The position numbers and the translations under genes are program-made. 5,438 bases of DNA from Bordetella parapertussis. Lineage in GTDB: Bacteria > Pseudomonadota > Gammaproteobacteria > Burkholderiales > SG8-39. Of this stretch, positions 1 to 5,438 are shown one piece after another. The notes beneath the pieces were generated by a model, which saw nothing but the letters and a program-made list of their open reading frames with translations, searched no databases and had not been told where the DNA came from. Numbering within the stretch: the stretch's first letter is position 1; each line of letters begins with the position of its first letter. The stretch lies in the NCBI GenBank assembly GCA_945906975.1, contig CAMDRY010000246.1:1-5438 (forward strand), written 5' to 3'.

Positions 1-718
1 CGTCATCGTGTGCAAGTGCGGCATCAATGTCATGCCGTGCTTCGTCAATGCGTCCCAAGGCGGCGAGCGCATACCCACGGTTGAGCCGCGTCTGCGCGTC
101 AGAGGGTGAGATCGCGAGTGCGTCGCTTGCCGCCATGATGACATGCTGATGGCGGCGGGCGTTCAGGTATGACTCAACCAGATTGCGGTGTGCGTCCGGC
201 GATTCGGGGCACGCGGTGAGAAAGCGGCGGTTGTTCTCGATCGCATCGCCGGTGCGTCCGAGCCGGAGTAGTACAACGCCGCGGTTTTGCAGTGACCCTG
301 CATGGGATCTGTTGATACTTAGCGCGTGATCATAGTGGGCAAGCGCTGCAATATCATTGCCCATGAGTTCTTGTACGAGGCCGACACTGAACAGCATTTG
401 CGTATCGGATGGATGACGGCGCAGCCAACTTAGGCCTTGTGCGAGCGCCGCATCGGTTTGCCCGGTCTGGCATGAGAGGGCAATCCGGGCAAGTGCGGCT
501 TGCCGGTGTCCGGGATCGAGCGCCAGCACATGTTCAAACGCGAGTAATGCGGCTGGCAGGTCACCAATCTGATGCCGGCATGCGCCAAGAAGGAACCACG
601 CCGCGGAGTCGGTGGGATGAGTGGTGCAATGCGACTGAAGTGATGCGGCGGCTTCGGGGGTTTTCCCAGCCGCTATTTGCTCCTCAGCTTGGCTGAGCGT
701 GGCGTCCCGGCGTTGCAA
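1..718 (-). CDS. Tandem TPR protein, 3' end outside window (function of C-terminal part unknown)
   Basis: My reading of the minus strand gives 239 uninterrupted codons from 718 to the window edge. After a short first helix pair (residues 8-35) there are six consecutive units of exactly 34 residues (36-69, 70-103, 104-137, 138-171, 172-205, 206-239). They carry the TPR signature: W/L..LG in helix A, a Gly near the turn, then A...F/Y..AL..(D/N/S)P. An unbroken 34-residue register argues for a real gene and against sequencing frameshifts. No signal peptide is visible, so it is probably cytoplasmic. The earliest usable start is TTG at 718-716. An in-frame TAG, which is the FecR gene's own stop, lies just upstream, and the next start-type codon (GTG, residue 64) would cut the first full TPR. 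No good Shine-Dalgarno precedes the TTG, so translation may be coupled to the FecR gene. TPR arrays like this often precede OGT-like glycosyltransferase or sulfotransferase domains, but that part is outside the window and I make no claim on it. Confidence 0.85.
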   Translation of the reverse strand, partial: MQRRDATLSQAEEQIAAGKTPEAAASLQSHCTTHPTDSAAWFLLGACRHQIGDLPAALLAFEHVLALDPGHRQAALARIALSCQTGQTDAALAQGLSWLRRHPSDTQMLFSVGLVQELMGNDIAALAHYDHALSINRSHAGSLQNRGVVLLRLGRTGDAIENNRRFLTACPESPDAHRNLVESYLNARRHQHVIMAASDALAISPSDAQTRLNRGYALAALGRIDEARHDIDAALAHDD

Positions 719-724
719 GCAGTG

Positions 725-2143
725 CTAGCGTTTCAGGGCGACCACCCCCACCACGCCGGTGCCGAGTACGGTGGTGAGAATCGAATAGGAGAAGCCCGCA
801 TTGGTCGCGCCGGCACCGGCGAAAAAACCGCTGACTGCAAGGGTGGAGGAGCTGTTGTTCAGGGTGTTGGCGCCGGTCGTAAAGTTGGTCGAGTTGCCCG
901 AGCCGCTGAAGCTGGCGGTGCTGGTGTTCAGGGACATGCCGTTGATGGTGGCGTTGAAGCTTTTTCCCGAAATCGATCCGGTGAAATTCACATTGACCAC
1001 ATTGCTGCTGAAGTTGCCGTTCAGCATTGCCGAATTGAGCGAACCAGTGGCGCTGCCGTCTGAGGTCGTCGGTTTGGTCGAGCCCATCAAACTATAGCTG
1101 TAGGTTGCGCCTGTTGGCAGACTGGCGGCAGCAGTGGGCAGGCCGACGACATAGTGAAATCCCGACGGGTATGTAGTGGACGTTCCGTTGACACTGACCG
1201 GACTTGTCCAGCGCCCCCAGGAAATAATGCCATCTTTTGTGCCGAAATCGTCAGTGCCGCCGATGAGGGTATTGGTGGTCGGACCATGGACGAAAGAGGT
1301 CATCCCGCTATTGTCATCGAAGGTGACGCTCACCGGAACGCCCAGGGCGGCGGTGCTGCCGGCAGTGGACGCGACCGCGTAGCCGGCACCGGATATGAGG
1401 GACCTGCGCCCCGACCCAAGGTCCGTGCTGCCTGTCTCGGTACGGTTTTCCCCCGAAGAGAATGTGTTGTCGTTTGAGGATGTCTTGTCTTCAGTGACGA
1501 ATGTTTTTTGCCGCCTGTTCTCGCCGCTCGGTGCCGGTACGTTCGGTCCCTGGCTGGTCTGCTGCGGCGGCTTGCCCGGGTCGGTGGCGGTGCCGGCCCT
1601 GCCGGCAGGAATGTCAAGTGATCCGGCGCCGGTGGTCAGTGTCCATACGCCGCTTGTGCCCTGGACGAGGGTCGAACCATCCGTGCCCACCGAAATGACC
1701 CCGCCGGTGCCGCGTATGCCTATCGTGGCGGTGGGCGTGCTGAGTCGATAGGCGTCGCGGTTGCGACGGCCCACAAGGCCGGTTACGGTGCGCATTGCCC
1801 CTTTTACGAGGTTGAAGAATGCTTTTTCCAGTCCGTCGGACTTGTCATCGAACGCGTAGTTGGTGATGGAAAAATCAGTATTTGGTTGCAGCGAAACATA
1901 GGAGCCGTCGGAGAAGCGAATTTGCGCGCGGCCACTGGCGTCGCTGATGATGCGGTCGCCTGTCTTGACTTCGTTGCCCTTGGCCAGTTGGCGGGCGCCG
2001 CCGTTGCTGTCGGTGACGGTGACGTTGCCCGCGGTGAAGTCCACGCGGCCGGTGTTGGCCATGGCGGTATGGGCAAAGGCGGCCGAAATCGCCGCGAGCA
2101 GCAGGCCGCGTGTACTGGGTCGGAGGCGCAAGGAATGGCTCAT
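725..2143 (-). CDS. Exported FecR-domain protein with C-terminal TbpB-like beta-barrel domain; candidate Slam/T11SS cargo
   Basis: 472 aa from ATG to TAG. Residues 1-29 form a Sec signal peptide (basic LRLRPSTR, hydrophobic LLLAAISAAFA, cleavage after AMA29). There is no lipobox and no cysteine anywhere in the protein. Residues ~33-180 form a FecR domain: GNEVKTGDRI at 56-65, FSDGSYVSLQPNT at 77-89, then LSTPTATIGIRGT at 134-146 and the GTSGVWTL strand at 162-169. In this family such domains are beta-rich periplasmic or surface modules, and this protein lacks the anti-sigma transmembrane layout of classical FecR. Residues ~180-250 are a polar G/S/T/N/Q/D/E linker. Residues ~260-472 are strand-rich and G/S/N/T-rich. 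They have a WGRW motif (309-312), HYVVGLPT, and a terminal GFFAGAGA...AGFSYS followed by a last strand. This resembles the C-terminal 8-strand barrel of TbpB/HpuA-like Slam substrates. It follows the Slam-like gene by 100 bp and precedes the TPR gene by 6 bp. Ligand and final location are unknown. A clear ribosome-binding site is not obvious. FecR assignment is strong; the barrel assignment is moderate. Confidence 0.87.
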   Translation of the reverse strand: MSHSLRLRPSTRGLLLAAISAAFAHTAMANTGRVDFTAGNVTVTDSNGGARQLAKGNEVKTGDRIISDASGRAQIRFSDGSYVSLQPNTDFSITNYAFDDKSDGLEKAFFNLVKGAMRTVTGLVGRRNRDAYRLSTPTATIGIRGTGGVISVGTDGSTLVQGTSGVWTLTTGAGSLDIPAGRAGTATDPGKPPQQTSQGPNVPAPSGENRRQKTFVTEDKTSSNDNTFSSGENRTETGSTDLGSGRRSLISGAGYAVASTAGSTAALGVPVSVTFDDNSGMTSFVHGPTTNTLIGGTDDFGTKDGIISWGRWTSPVSVNGTSTTYPSGFHYVVGLPTAAASLPTGATYSYSLMGSTKPTTSDGSATGSLNSAMLNGNFSSNVVNVNFTGSISGKSFNATINGMSLNTSTASFSGSGNSTNFTTGANTLNNSSSTLAVSGFFAGAGATNAGFSYSILTTVLGTGVVGVVALKR

Positions 2144-2243
2144 GGCTGAAGTCTTTGCAGAAAAATGGGGCAGTGTGTATTAACCGCCAAAACGATCAAG
2201 CCGGACAGGAACTAAGTCACTTATACGGCTCTGGAATCGGGCT

Positions 2244-3572
2244 CTAGAAGTCTCGTCGCAGCAACACCGAAGCCATGCTGCGGGTGAATTTGCTGGTCGC
2301 GATATTCGACTTGTTGTCGGTATAGGAAATCTGCGGGCTCAGGGTCCAGCCCTGGGCGAAACTGTAATTGACGCCGGCGCGAAGGTCGGATTGCTCGTCC
2401 GCGCGTTGGGTCAGGAAGAGCGGTTCCTGCCCGTCATAGCGGCGTTGCTCGGCGCTGACAGAGGCAAACAATACCGTCTGGACGGCAATGTCCAGTTGGC
2501 CGCCGATGCGGGCGCCAAGCGGCTTGTGTCCGAGGTGTCTCACCCCCGGTGCGGTTTCTTTTTCCTCGCCGGCATAAATGCTGCCGAATACCACCGCATT
2601 ACGCGATCCGCCAAGGCCCTCGGCAAACGCCAGCCCGTAGATGCCGCGGCGCGCATTGCGAATGGCCTGCGACGGATAGCGCAGGTCTGAGATTTGCGTG
2701 AACGCGGTGATGGAGCGCGTGTCGCTGTAGTAATGCTGCCATTGGGCCACCAGGCCAGTGGTGTCGCGAAAGCGCGTGTTATCGACGCTGAAGCTCTGCA
2801 CTTGCACGCCTGCTGAGATGGCTTCCTTGCCGCGCGCCCAGCGCGCACCGAGATTGCCGTCTATTGAATTGGTGTCGAACTGCTTTTGCGTGCTGTTGAG
2901 CTTGCCGTTGACCGCAACACCGGCGAGCAGCGCCCATTCTTCCGTGATTGGCTGAACTAGATTGACGCCGCCGGCGAGACTGGTGAAGTTGTCGCCAATG
3001 CGGGTGCTGCCGGCCCCAAGGTTGACGATCGCGCCGCCCAGTGCGGGAAGTGCAATTTGTCCGTTGCCGGTGGCGCTGTTGACGTTGCTGTCGGTGCCGA
3101 GGCCCAATTCAAAGTAGGCCGACAGACGGCGCCCGTCTGCTATCAACGCACCAAGCAGCCGGTCTATGGTCTGTTTGACCGCATCCGGGGGGTTGCTGGC
3201 GAGTACGTTCCGAAACTCGCGTTTGGCATTTTCGCGTTCACCCAGTTCCACATAGGCGCGGGCAATCTCGGCGCGCGCCTGCTGGTAGTCTGGGTTGACC
3301 GCGAGGACGCGCTCTAGCGCGAAGACGGCCTGCTGCGCATCGCCGGCATCCAGTGCGGCGAGGCCAAGCAGGTAGTCGTATTCAAGATTTCCGGCGCGGT
3401 CGCCTTCCAGCGGCAGCAAGAGCTCAAGCGCTGCCTTGGAATTTTTCTGCGCAACCATGCCCCGAGCGCGGTCGAGCAGGTCGTCCGCGAGCGCGAGGTT
3501 TTGCCAAGATGAAAGCAAAACAATGGTGCCTAAGAAAATGACTTTAAAAGTTTTTGTGTTTTTTTCTTTCAC
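2244..3572 (-). CDS. Slam-like / type XI secretion outer-membrane protein (TPR + DUF560-type beta-barrel)
   Basis: 442 aa. Residues 1-29 are a signal peptide (KEKNTKTFK, then VIFLGTIVLLSS, cleavage after LALA29). Residues ~31-145 are periplasmic helical repeats. Two are clear TPRs (62-95 and 96-129, with LLGLAALDAGDAQQAVFALE and AEIARAYVELGERENA), with a degenerate one before them. The segment ELGLGTDSNVN (155-165) is the typical entry into the barrel of Slam-type proteins. The remaining ~290 residues are alternating amphipathic strands ending in SVLLRRDF, with the C-terminal Phe expected of a BAM-inserted barrel. Known Slam/T11SS members move surface lipoproteins (TbpB, LbpB, HpuA, fHbp) or soluble hemophores across the outer membrane. 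Length is a little below the ~490 aa of Neisseria Slam1. The start is GTG (3572-3570): an in-frame TAA lies 15 bases upstream and no ATG is available that keeps the signal peptide. No clear Shine-Dalgarno is seen. The first codons are unusually A/T-rich compared with the rest. The following gene looks like its cargo. A general TPR-porin is the alternative. Confidence 0.85.
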   Translation of the reverse strand: MKEKNTKTFKVIFLGTIVLLSSWQNLALADDLLDRARGMVAQKNSKAALELLLPLEGDRAGNLEYDYLLGLAALDAGDAQQAVFALERVLAVNPDYQQARAEIARAYVELGERENAKREFRNVLASNPPDAVKQTIDRLLGALIADGRRLSAYFELGLGTDSNVNSATGNGQIALPALGGAIVNLGAGSTRIGDNFTSLAGGVNLVQPITEEWALLAGVAVNGKLNSTQKQFDTNSIDGNLGARWARGKEAISAGVQVQSFSVDNTRFRDTTGLVAQWQHYYSDTRSITAFTQISDLRYPSQAIRNARRGIYGLAFAEGLGGSRNAVVFGSIYAGEEKETAPGVRHLGHKPLGARIGGQLDIAVQTVLFASVSAEQRRYDGQEPLFLTQRADEQSDLRAGVNYSFAQGWTLSPQISYTDNKSNIATSKFTRSMASVLLRRDF

Positions 3573-3589
3573 TTTAAATTCAATATTTT

Positions 3590-3608
3590 ACATTAAGATT
3601 ATTAATGT
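3590..3608. promoter_or_regulatory. AT-rich perfect dyad, possible operator
   Basis: ACATTAA (3590-3596), spacer GATTA, then TTAATGT (3602-3608): a perfect 7+7 bp inverted repeat of 19 bp. It lies directly downstream of the candidate -10 element and over the predicted transcription start, a normal position for a repressor site. It has the length of a Fur box, but the sequence matches the Fur consensus poorly. Any regulator is unknown. Confidence 0.3.
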
Positions 3609-3611
3609 TTA

Positions 3612-3640
3612 ATATTATTATGGGTGAGAAAAACAGGCAA
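3612..3640 (-). promoter_or_regulatory. Candidate sigma70 promoter for the Slam-like / FecR / TPR unit
   Basis: On the minus strand TTGCCT (3640-3635) and TAATAT (3617-3612) are separated by exactly 17 bases. Each hexamer matches 4 of 6 consensus positions. The predicted start of transcription is near 3605, leaving about 30 bases of leader before the GTG at 3572. It sits at the edge of an A/T-rich island in GC-rich DNA, just after the FadJ stop, where a new transcription unit would be expected. A/T-rich DNA yields such matches easily, so this is only a candidate. Confidence 0.35.
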
Positions 3641-3702
3641 AGCAGGCGGTGGCATGGTTTATCGCGTTATGGTCCGGGGCCAAATCCTGATCAGACCTGT
3701 TT

Positions 3703-3719
3703 GCTGCAGAGTTTGCAGC
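3703..3719. repeat. Small inverted repeat after the FadJ gene
   Basis: GCTGCA, spacer GAGTT, TGCAGC forms a perfect 6 bp stem with a 5-base loop, about 20 bases past the FadJ stop in the transcribed direction. No U-tract follows on the minus strand, so it is not a convincing intrinsic terminator. It could be an mRNA 3'-end stabilising hairpin or chance. Nearby, CTGATCAG (3687-3694) is an 8 bp palindrome. Confidence 0.3.
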
Positions 3720-3740
3720 CAGGCCCAAACCAGCGGTAAA

Positions 3741-5438
3741 TCAGCGACTGGCGCGGGCTTTCAGGTGGTGCATGGGGCCGCCGCGGAAGGGCGCGAAGCC
3801 TGTGCCGAAGATCAGCCCGGCGTCAGCCAGATCGGCGTCGGCGACGATGCCCTCGGCGACGACTTTTTGTGTTTCATCCAGGTACGGACGTATCAGGCGC
3901 TCAATCAACCCTTCATCAATTTTTCCCGCCGGGTGTTTCTGCGGCTTGCCCTTGATCCATTGGTAAAAGCCGTCAGCGGTTTTTTTGCCCAGCTTGCCGG
4001 CGTTAACCAGTTCCATCAGGCGTTTAGGCGGCTTGGCATTCGCACTTGCAAGCGCTGTTCCGGCGTGTACGCAAATATCCAGGCCCACGGTGTCTGCCAG
4101 TTCAATCGGCCCCATGGGCATGCCGAATTGCTCCATCGCCGCGTCGATGGTCTCGATCGCGATTCCTTCGTCGGCCATGCGAAACGCATTGGCGATATAA
4201 GGACCGAGCACACGGTTGACCAAAAAGCCCGCGGAGTCCTTGACGTGCAGCGGCAGCTTGTCGATCTGGCGCACGAAGGCGGCGGCGTTGCCCGCGATCG
4301 CCGCGTCGGTGTTGCCGGCCGAGACGATTTCGACCAGTTGCATCTGCGGTACCGGATTGAAGAAATGTATGCCGACAAGACGCGAGGGGCGGGCAAGGTT
4401 TGCGCCGATATCCGCCAGCTTCAGGCTTGACGTATTTGTGGCCATTATCGCGCCCGGCTTGGCGATTTTTTCGAGGTTCGCGAAAAGTGCCCGCTTCGCC
4501 TCAAGGTTTTCGAAAATAGCCTCGATGATCACATCGGCGTGGCGTGCCCCGTCGCCCGTGATATCGGGAACCATCAGGTCAGTCGCATCGCGGATGCGCG
4601 CCTTGTCGCGCAGGCGGCGTTGGAACAGTTGGGCGGCGCGTTGCATTGCCGGGGCGATCCGTTCGGCGTTCTGGTCTTGCAGCGTCACCGTCAGCCCGCG
4701 CATCGCACACACCGCCGCGATGTCGCCACCCATTACGCCGGCACCGATGATATGCACGTGCTTTGCCGTGAAGCTGCTGTCCTTGCCCAACGCCTTCATG
4801 CGTTCCTGCAAAAAGAAAATGCGAATCAGGTTGCGCGCCGTATCGCCCTCAATGAGTGTGGCCACCGATGCCCGATCGCCGGGCGGTGGCGCAAACGGAT
4901 CGCCATCGTATTTTTGCCACAGGTCAAGGATGGCATAGGGTGCCGGGTAGTGCTCGCGCCGCGCCTTTGTGGCAAGTTGCTTGCGCGCCTGCGCGGCGAC
5001 GATGCCCTTGAGCGGGCCGTTCATGAGCGCCATCAGGAAGGGCAGTTTTCGCGCTGGCGGCGCCTCCATCAGCATCATGCGCGCCGTGTTCTCCATGATG
5101 CGCGGCGGCACGTTTGCGTCAACGAGTCCCATTTTCCGCGCGCGTTTGGCGTCTATGCCTTTTCCGGTCATCAGCATGTCCAGCGCTGCGGCCGGCCCGA
5201 CAAGGCGCGGCAGGCGCTTCACGCCACCCCACGCAGGCAGGATGCCGAGCATGACCTCGGGCAGTGCCATGCGGGTTTTCGGATCATCCACGGCCACACG
5301 GTAGCGGCAGGCCAGTGCGAGTTCCAGACCGCCGCCCATGCAAAATCCGCGCACCAGCGCCAGTGTCGGAAAGGGCAGGGAGGCGAGCTTGTTGAGCACG
5401 TCCCAGCCGCGGCGCACGATGGCGAGGCCATCGGCGGC
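3741..5438 (-). CDS. fadJ: FadJ-type fatty-acid oxidation alpha subunit (enoyl-CoA hydratase / 3-hydroxyacyl-CoA dehydrogenase), 5' partial
   Basis: 565 residues are visible; the reading frame is open to the window edge, so the GTG at 5417 is internal and roughly 100 N-terminal residues are missing. Residue numbers here count from the window edge. Crotonase part (1 to ~190): FCMGGGLELALAC then DDPKTRMALPEVMLGILP, with both acid residues of enoyl-CoA hydratases present (E39 in GGGLE, E61 in LPEV). The dehydrogenase part has the Rossmann NAD motif GAGVMGGDIA (from 232), TNTSSL (334-339), and the HFFNP box with catalytic-type His358 and Glu370. The C-terminal 3HCDH domain starts at DSAGFLVNR, and a second half-repeat ends in FGTGFAPFRGGP. 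It would hydrate trans-2-enoyl-CoA and oxidise L-3-hydroxyacyl-CoA with NAD+ in the cytoplasm, with a FadI/FadA-type thiolase not seen here. The motif spelling is closer to FadJ than FadB. The protein stops about 9 residues after FRGGP, shorter than E. coli FadJ. It has no obvious functional link with the downstream genes. Confidence 0.95.
   Translation of the reverse strand, partial: AADGLAIVRRGWDVLNKLASLPFPTLALVRGFCMGGGLELALACRYRVAVDDPKTRMALPEVMLGILPAWGGVKRLPRLVGPAAALDMLMTGKGIDAKRARKMGLVDANVPPRIMENTARMMLMEAPPARKLPFLMALMNGPLKGIVAAQARKQLATKARREHYPAPYAILDLWQKYDGDPFAPPPGDRASVATLIEGDTARNLIRIFFLQERMKALGKDSSFTAKHVHIIGAGVMGGDIAAVCAMRGLTVTLQDQNAERIAPAMQRAAQLFQRRLRDKARIRDATDLMVPDITGDGARHADVIIEAIFENLEAKRALFANLEKIAKPGAIMATNTSSLKLADIGANLARPSRLVGIHFFNPVPQMQLVEIVSAGNTDAAIAGNAAAFVRQIDKLPLHVKDSAGFLVNRVLGPYIANAFRMADEGIAIETIDAAMEQFGMPMGPIELADTVGLDICVHAGTALASANAKPPKRLMELVNAGKLGKKTADGFYQWIKGKPQKHPAGKIDEGLIERLIRPYLDETQKVVAEGIVADADLADAGLIFGTGFAPFRGGPMHHLKARASR

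What the first reader, a model, noticed from the sequence alone, without database searches (positions are those of the whole stretch)
725..3572. Slam-like translocator paired with a non-lipidated FecR-domain protein: candidate type XI secretion system with an unusual cargo
Seen: a signal peptide/TPR/outer-membrane-barrel protein is followed by an exported protein whose C-terminal domain is strand-rich and ends in the GFFAG..A..AG.SYS pattern plus a short final strand. Known: Slam/T11SS proteins sit beside their cargo, and cargo share a TbpB-like C-terminal barrel; the well-studied ones are lipoproteins or soluble hemophores. Inferred: this FecR protein is the substrate. It has no cysteine, so it would be released or held by non-lipid contacts, and its passenger is a FecR domain rather than a metal- or heme-binding domain.
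Basis: partly seen in the sequence, partly recalled or inferred. Interest (0 to 1): 0.75.

Follow-up and report, generated by a model that had tools for sequence, protein, structure and literature searches.

The report
FecR-type type XI secretion operon
Three neighbouring bacterial genes appear to encode an outer-membrane export channel, the protein it pushes out of the cell, and an enzyme that probably sugar-coats that protein first, which suggests a cargo for a group of export channels whose cargo is mostly unknown.

Summary
The 442-aa protein is a SlipAM/Slam-type outer-membrane protein (Pfam over cut-off; predicted TPR plus 14-strand barrel). The 472-aa protein has a signal-like start, no cysteine, a FecR domain and a C-terminal half whose predicted fold matches TbpB, NHBA, fHbp and haemophilins, the known Slam-type cargo. 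In 61 of 65 barrel-bearing FecR loci with room upstream, a Slam-like gene lies directly upstream. In 40 genomes of one order, 8 of 10 SlipAM genes sit next to such a FecR gene. GT41 genes follow 28 of 68 barrel-bearing FecR genes and 0 of 39 others, and 20 of 21 tested fall in one clade. Best reading: a three-partner type XI system, comparable to HMW1A/B/C, in which GT41 glycosylates the FecR cargo before Slam exports it. Export and glycosylation are inferred. Against a barrel-only rule, FecR proteins without a detected barrel also pair with Slam-like genes. No paper joining FecR or GT41 with this system turned up in my searches.

The parts
2244..3572 (-). Slam-like (SlipAM/DUF560) outer-membrane protein, 442 aa: signal-like N-terminus (about 3486-3572), TPR region (about 3180-3374), 14-strand barrel (about 2247-3128)
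   Evidence: PF04575 33.9 bits vs cut-off 22; AF2 model pLDDT 81 with 14 long strands; Foldseek hits include BcsC, FadL, CymA, OmpG; 1326 homologues at E<=1e-3 among 7997 candidates scored
725..2143 (-). FecR-domain proposed cargo, 472 aa, not lipidated; signal-like N-terminus about 2057-2143
   Evidence: PF04773 47.7 bits vs cut-off 24; 943 homologues at E<=1e-3 among 7986 candidates scored; 0 of the 120 listed with a lipobox-like motif
1667..1957 (-). FecR domain (residues 63-159), fold like the periplasmic domain of PupR
1409..1537 (-). disordered S/T-rich linker (residues 203-245)
   Evidence: pLDDT under 50; S+T about 28% of residues 186-250
728..1387 (-). handle plus 8-strand-type C-terminal barrel (residues 253-472; barrel about 338-472)
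2..718 (-). N-terminal TPR half of a GT41 (O-GlcNAc-transferase-like) glycosyltransferase, cut by the window end; TTG start 6 nt after the FecR stop
   Evidence: P0241 (728 aa, 75-76% over the whole piece, PF13844) and P0242 (98.5% over residues 108-239, PF13844); the 16 best phmmer hits among all ORFs of 80 loci are the GT41-gene ORFs downstream of FecR (in L014 the gene is frame-broken and the hit is its TPR piece)
3573..3740 (.). AT-rich intergenic stretch upstream of the Slam-like gene, probable operon start
   Evidence: sequence; consensus promoter-like matches near 3587-3621 are on the + strand only, so no promoter on the coding strand was recognised there

Best explanation
The locus is a three-gene type XI secretion (T11SS) operon: outer-membrane translocon (Slam-like), cargo (FecR domain plus TbpB-type C-lobe) and a dedicated GT41 glycosyltransferase. 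Proposed working: the GT41 enzyme adds simple sugars, probably O-linked on the Ser/Thr-rich part, to the cargo in the cytoplasm. The cargo passes Sec, its signal peptide is removed, and a periplasmic holdase (Skp in the known system) keeps it export-competent. The C-terminal handle-barrel docks on the Slam-like pore, which moves the protein out. The FecR domain is the N-terminal effector or anchoring part. Shown by computation: domain make-up, fold match of the predicted model, conserved gene order, GT41 clade. Inferred: export, glycosylation, its site, and the final location (surface or released).
For: SlipAM over cut-off and 14-strand TPR barrel. Cargo fold equals known T11SS cargo. Independent sequence support in relatives: PF01298 TbpB_B_D hits 4 of 70 family members at E<=1, best 1.9e-5, and is listed for P0083; NCBIfam 'Slam-dependent surface lipoprotein' NF041636 hits 12 of 70 at E<=1e-3, best 4e-8 (its cut-off was not shown). 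Slam-like gene directly upstream in 61 of 65 barrel-bearing loci with room. Conversely 8 of 10 SlipAM genes over cut-off in 40 genomes are next to this FecR family (4 of the 8 overlap loci). GT41 downstream in 28 of 68 barrel-bearing loci (22 of the 54 with at least 2 kb downstream) and 0 of 39 barrel-negative (25 with at least 2 kb). In a tree of 41 GT41 domains, 20 of 21 locus-type copies (19 of the 28 locus GT41s plus P0241 and P0242) and one outsider form a 95/96-supported group apart from 19 of 20 other GT41s of eight genomes with such loci; 3 label changes vs 14.0 in shuffles, 0 of 500 as low. P0241 aligns to human OGT at 3.6e-96. [quoted passage not shown] Glycosylation of a T11SS cargo (Pls) has already been suggested from its gel mobility (PMC12282271, passages).
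Against: Neither PF01298 nor NF041636 hits the window protein itself at E<=1. FecR proteins without a detected barrel are also paired with Slam-like genes: 32 of 39 (27 of 33 if the 6 cut by a contig end are left out), and in 20 weaker FecR matches 17 have a Slam-like neighbour but only 8 a detected barrel. 32 of 54 barrel-bearing loci with room have no GT41 downstream, so the enzyme is not obligatory. The window ends before the GT41 catalytic part. Ser plus Thr enrichment of the C-lobe is strong in the window protein (31%) but modest in the family (mean 24.5% of the last 220 residues against 18.4% in the FecR part). No experiment bears on export or sugar.
Confidence: 0.62

Rival explanations
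1. Two-partner T11SS only: the Slam-like protein exports the FecR-barrel protein, and the GT41 gene is an occasional neighbour with another target (for example flagellin or surface glycan).
For: GT41 is absent downstream in 32 of 54 barrel-bearing loci with room; GT41 is common in these genomes, 20 of 24 searched have at least one match.
Against: Locus GT41s nearly all fall in their own clade although other GT41s exist in the same genomes; genes are nearly touching or overlapping in many loci; 0 of 39 barrel-negative loci have it.
Confidence: 0.22
2. The FecR domain, not the barrel, is what the Slam-like protein recognises; the pair is a FecR-specific outer-membrane device (sensor or anchoring pore), and the TbpB-like C-lobe is an optional extra.
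For: Slam-like neighbour kept where no barrel is detected: 32 of 39, 9 of the 12 controls without detected barrel; several such proteins are short FecR plus proline-rich tail. 70 of 70 family members match NCBIfam's LapA retention module at E<=1e-3; the window protein's score is below the cut-off (31.4 vs 50 bits), the others' scores were not shown.
Against: My barrel profile misses some real barrels (L066 looks barrel-like at its C-terminus by eye) and 6 of the 39 are cut by a contig end, so barrel-negative is over-counted; many of the 39 are close kin (Acidovorax). Known T11SS cargo are taken to be targeted by the barrel (PMC12282271, section 15).
Confidence: 0.12
3. A periplasmic FecR regulator acting with an outer-membrane porin, unrelated to secretion.
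For: FecR/PupR domains are periplasmic signalling parts in regulators (fold match; role recalled).
Against: No cytoplasmic anti-sigma part before the domain; a TbpB-type C-lobe is attached; none of the other three scanned ORFs in the window is a sigma factor or TonB receptor.
Confidence: 0.04

Closest known systems
Type XI secretion system / Slam (DUF560, PF04575) with TbpB, HpuA, haemophilin cargo
   Same: TPR plus 14-strand outer-membrane protein beside a signal-peptide protein with a handle plus C-terminal barrel; soluble (non-lipidated) cargo is already known (PMC12282271, section 15)
   Different: Effector part is a FecR domain; not among the cargo architectures described for cluster 1 in that section; comes with a GT41 enzyme in part of the loci; record titles of the loci are mostly environmental Beta- and Gammaproteobacteria
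HMW1A/HMW1B/HMW1C two-partner secretion with third partner (GT41)
   Same: Exported protein, cognate outer-membrane pore and a neighbouring GT41 enzyme
   Different: Different pore (SlipAM, not TpsB) and cargo fold; the enzyme is TPR/OGT-type, whereas HMW1C has an AAD domain and makes N-links (PMC3983070, passages)
FecR/PupR iron regulators
   Same: FecR domain fold
   Different: No anti-sigma part; signal-like N-terminus and a TbpB-type C-lobe instead
LapA-type adhesins with N-terminal retention module
   Same: N-terminal region 33-96 weakly matches the retention-module profile and all 70 relatives scanned match it at E<=1e-3
   Different: Window protein is below the curated cut-off; no sign of type I secretion in the window; resemblance only a lead

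Membership tests
T11SS outer-membrane protein (SlipAM/Slam) | PF04575 domain over curated cut-off | tested here: met
   33.9 bits vs 22
T11SS outer-membrane protein (SlipAM/Slam) | N-terminal TPRs and 14-strand barrel | tested here: met
   TPR_19 2.4e-9; 14 long strands in AF2 model (a prediction). The specific TPR_Slam model PF24575 is below its cut-off (18.2 vs 35.2)
T11SS outer-membrane protein (SlipAM/Slam) | moves cargo across the outer membrane | not testable with these tools
   needs bench work
T11SS cargo (TbpB-type barrel) | C-terminal handle plus 8-strand barrel fold | tested here: met
T11SS cargo (TbpB-type barrel) | sequence match to TbpBBD / Slam-dependent profiles | tested here: inconclusive
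   window protein: no hit at E<=1; 4 of 70 relatives hit PF01298 at E<=1, best 1.9e-5; 12 of 70 hit NF041636 at E<=1e-3, best 4e-8
T11SS cargo (TbpB-type barrel) | gene beside the outer-membrane protein gene | tested here: met
   in the window and in 61 of 65 related loci with room
T11SS cargo (TbpB-type barrel) | export depends on the Slam protein | not testable with these tools
   no experiment
FecR anti-sigma regulators | FecR domain PF04773 | tested here: met
   47.7 bits vs 24
FecR anti-sigma regulators | cytoplasmic anti-sigma part, membrane anchor, adjacent sigma factor and TonB receptor | tested here: not met
   signal-like N-terminus directly before the domain; none of the other three scanned ORFs in this 5.4-kb window is of that kind
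GT41 / O-GlcNAc transferase (ORF 2-718) | TPRs followed by PF13844 catalytic domain | tested here: inconclusive
   TPRs in the window; the catalytic part lies outside, but relatives P0242 (98.5% over 132 residues) and P0241 (75-76% over all 239 residues) carry PF13844
HMW1C-like N-glycosyltransferase | AAD N-terminal domain instead of TPR | tested here: not met
   N-terminus is TPR
LapA retention module | NF033682 over cut-off | tested here: not met
   window protein 31.4 bits vs 50

The most novel reading that the evidence does not exclude
A three-partner type XI system: a FecR protein is O-glycosylated in the cytoplasm by a dedicated OGT-type enzyme, exported by its Slam-like pore barrel-end first, and then held at the surface without lipid because the N-terminal FecR domain stays in the pore as a plug (and/or through its glycans). 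This FecR class would be the main cargo of environmental T11SS proteins in these bacteria.
Probability: 0.2. Interest if true: 0.88.

Novelty: new variant of a known kind. Interest (0 to 1): 0.72.

Why it matters
[quoted passage not shown] A FecR-barrel family paired with its Slam-like gene in dozens of genomes gives that open question a concrete, testable answer, although I did not place the window's protein in those clusters. A dedicated GT41 partner would supply an enzyme for the glycosylation of T11SS cargo that has so far only been suggested (PMC12282271, passages) and would link T11SS to HMW1C-type systems. FecR as an exported domain would also change how proteins annotated only as 'FecR family protein' are read.

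Tried and rejected
No whole genome is held for the window, so its own full GT41 gene and wider context could not be read. Sequence search of solved structures gave no significant hit for the cargo (best E 0.11), and only TPR-type or chance matches, no Slam, for the outer-membrane protein. A regulator reading was considered and set aside (see rivals). PaaK/CapK-like AMP-ligase genes on the same strand in some loci (11 of 54 barrel-bearing loci with room; profiles; L001, the closest of the 80 loci, has one upstream of Slam) were considered as a constant part and rejected because most loci lack them and none was found among the scanned ORFs of the window.

Control that went partly against the simple reading: 20 weaker FecR matches from 19 genomes (chosen by me at rough intervals down the listing, from well over 100 listed) still had a Slam-like neighbour in 17 of 20, with a detected barrel in 8; so pairing does not depend on a detectable barrel.

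Counting notes. So shares are for close relatives, not unbiased frequencies. One search used 107 loci after I dropped 23 duplicate or superseded locus ids; one search found no further duplicates, only two same-genus pairs at 95-97% identity (L052/L055, L054/L057). Barrel-positive means over 30 bits with my own profile, counting a barrel in an overlapping or adjoining frame (as in L020, L050). Six of the 39 barrel-negative loci (L006, L023, L061, L062, L077, L106) are cut by a contig end, five of them among the 32 with Slam. For L016 I picked by hand the originally matched FecR gene. 'Directly upstream' allows overlapping open frames and gaps up to 400 bases. The four of 65 without it are L064 and L068 (a Slam-like gene elsewhere in the locus), L073 (none seen) and L113 (second of two tandem FecR genes). 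GT41 means within 4.5 kb downstream, same strand. MAG names such as Pedobacter or Bordetella in record titles are probably wrong labels (my judgement). My Slam profile was checked on 10 divergent hits: 9 of 10 over Pfam's cut-off, L058 just below and L035 and L045 barely above. The GT41 tree took 19 of 28 locus GT41s and 20 other GT41s that I picked from the list; one of the others (L181) falls inside the locus clade and one locus GT41 (L129, long branch) falls outside. P0241 and P0242 were counted with the locus group on the strength.

Literature: searches (held open-licence library only, top rows of each listing seen) showed no paper combining FecR, or GT41, with T11SS/DUF560; 'Fec' occurs 0 times in the main text of PMC12282271 and PMC8406197; 'O-GlcNAc' 0 times in both; supplementary tables could not be read.
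Full report
What is there. On the minus strand the window holds, in order, a fatty-acid-oxidation multienzyme gene (3741-5417, 3HCDH and ECH domains), the Slam-like gene (2244-3572), the FecR gene (725-2143) and a cut TPR ORF (2-718). The Slam-like gene follows a 168-base AT-rich gap, the FecR gene starts 100 bases after it, and the TPR ORF starts 6 bases after the FecR stop in the same frame.

The outer-membrane protein. SlipAM PF04575 scores 33.9 bits against a cut-off of 22 over residues 160-442, with TPRs before it; the Slam-specific TPR model is below its cut-off. The AlphaFold2 model (56 sequences, pLDDT 81, pTM 0.62) shows TPR helices and 14 long strands, the strand number given for DUF560 proteins and different from the 16 of PgaA (PMC8406197, passages). 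Foldseek's top solved structures include BcsC (TPR plus barrel), FadL, CymA and OmpG; no solved Slam was found by sequence.

Conserved neighbourhood. One scan of genome contigs with patterns lying only in the FecR domain gave 289 relatives, of which the best 80 loci were kept; the patterns do not select for the barrel, but the ranking by similarity to the whole protein favours it. A survey of 399 genomes of one order found matches in 157 and gave 30 loci (longer stretches). Over 107 non-duplicate loci (one search checked for leftovers), 68 have a detected barrel; of the 65 with at least 900 bases upstream, 61 have a Slam-like gene directly upstream on the same strand. Of 39 without a detected barrel, 32 do; 6 of these 39 are cut by a contig end, and many are close kin (Acidovorax). 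Among 20 weaker FecR matches taken as a control, 17 do, 8 of the 20 with a detected barrel. Asked the other way, SlipAM was searched in 40 of these genomes: 10 genes over cut-off in 9 genomes, 8 of them next to this FecR family (4 of the 8 are loci already in the 107). So FecR is the usual neighbour of SlipAM in this sample, and the barrel is common but not universal, or not always detectable; L066, counted as barrel-negative, ends in what looks like a barrel by eye.

The third gene. Directly downstream of FecR in L003, L005, L008, L010 and L016 lies a TPR protein with Glyco_transf_41 (E from 2.7e-73 to 1.4e-101). GT41 lies within 4.5 kb downstream in 22 of 54 barrel-bearing loci with at least 2 kb of sequence there, in 28 of all 68, and in 0 of 39 barrel-negative loci (25 of which have at least 2 kb downstream). 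The window's cut ORF is the start of such a gene: its 16 best matches among all ORFs of the 80 loci are exactly the GT41-gene ORFs there (for the frame-broken L014 gene, its TPR piece), and a database search with it found P0241 (728 aa, 75-76% over the whole piece) and P0242 (98.5% over residues 108-239), both with PF13844. P0241's contig length, 10,846, is also the listed length for an 88% FecR relative (P0002) and an 88% Slam relative (P0122), which suggests one contig. P0241 aligns to human OGT at 3.6e-96, keeping the DFGxHPTS and K-x-D-P stretches (their catalytic roles are recalled). In a tree of 41 GT41 domains, 20 of 21 locus-type copies (19 of the 28 locus GT41s, plus P0241 and P0242) and one outsider form a 95/96-supported group apart from 19 of 20 other GT41s from eight genomes with such loci; 3 label changes against 14.0 expected by shuffling, 0 of 500 as low. 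The enzyme thus looks like a dedicated partner rather than a random neighbour, though a majority of barrel-bearing loci lack it.

How it most likely works. Purified TbpB is translocated into Slam1 proteoliposomes, helped by Skp (PMC9090332, abstract and passages). Known cargo have an N-terminal effector, a pedestal or handle and a C-terminal barrel taken as the targeting part (PMC12282271, section 15). By analogy the FecR protein is the exported cargo. A GT41 enzyme of this kind is expected in the cytoplasm (inference), so it would modify the cargo before Sec, as HMW1C does for HMW1; there, loss of the enzyme destabilises the adhesin and releases what remains (PMC3983070, passages). Possible glycosylation of a T11SS cargo, Pls, was raised from its gel mobility (PMC12282271, passages). 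The window cargo's linker and C-lobe are about 28-31% Ser plus Thr, against a family mean of 24.5% in the last 220 residues, which fits but does not show O-glycosylation. Long relatives (open frames up to 2,556 aa) carry extra barrels or repetitive stretches between FecR and the end, without any other Pfam domain over its cut-off in the five scanned, which looks adhesin-like to me.

Anchoring. Without lipid the protein is released or held otherwise. The N-terminal part of all 70 family members scanned matches the LapA retention module at E<=1e-3 (window 31.4 bits against a cut-off of 50). With FecR being the part that stays constant beside Slam, a plug role for FecR is possible; it is a lead only.

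Novelty. The parts are known kinds. The combination was found in none of the papers listed by my searches (held library only, supplements unread). I rate it a new variant of T11SS. Confidence about 0.85 that the FecR protein is the cargo of this Slam-like protein, about 0.62 for the whole three-partner account.

Noticed in passing
window 2-718 (-): Cut TPR ORF is the start of a GT41 O-GlcNAc-transferase-like gene, 6 nt after the FecR stop.
   Followed up: yes
L111, L112, L114, L116, L117, L118, L121, L122, L021, L018, L016; L001 upstream of Slam: PaaK/CapK-like AMP-ligase genes, up to three in a row (L114), sit between or beside the Slam, FecR and GT41 genes; L018 also has a methyltransferase. 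Perhaps a further modification of the cargo or its glycan.
   Followed up: partly
L035, L037-L041, L043-L046 and further loci, mostly Acidovorax by record title: FecR proteins with proline-rich tails and no detected barrel directly after a borderline SlipAM gene.
   Followed up: partly
L025, L026, L042, L111, L117, L118: FecR proteins of about 1,000-1,300 aa with three or four barrel-type matches.
   Followed up: partly
L112:6515-13489 and L066:7899-15566: FecR open frames of 2,325 and 2,556 aa with alanine-rich or PE-repeat middles after a Slam-like gene, adhesin-like in shape.
   Followed up: partly
L129, L113, L016, L112: Duplicated FecR genes or whole Slam-FecR pairs in one locus.
   Followed up: no
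family alignment A1, residues 309-312 and last 90 residues: An invariant W-x-R-W motif in the handle (W309, R311, W312) and a cysteine pair near the end in 100 of 120 relatives (lost in the window protein).
   Followed up: no
window 3741-5417 (-): 3-hydroxyacyl-CoA dehydrogenase / enoyl-CoA hydratase gene next door; whether related loci keep it was not tested.
   Followed up: no
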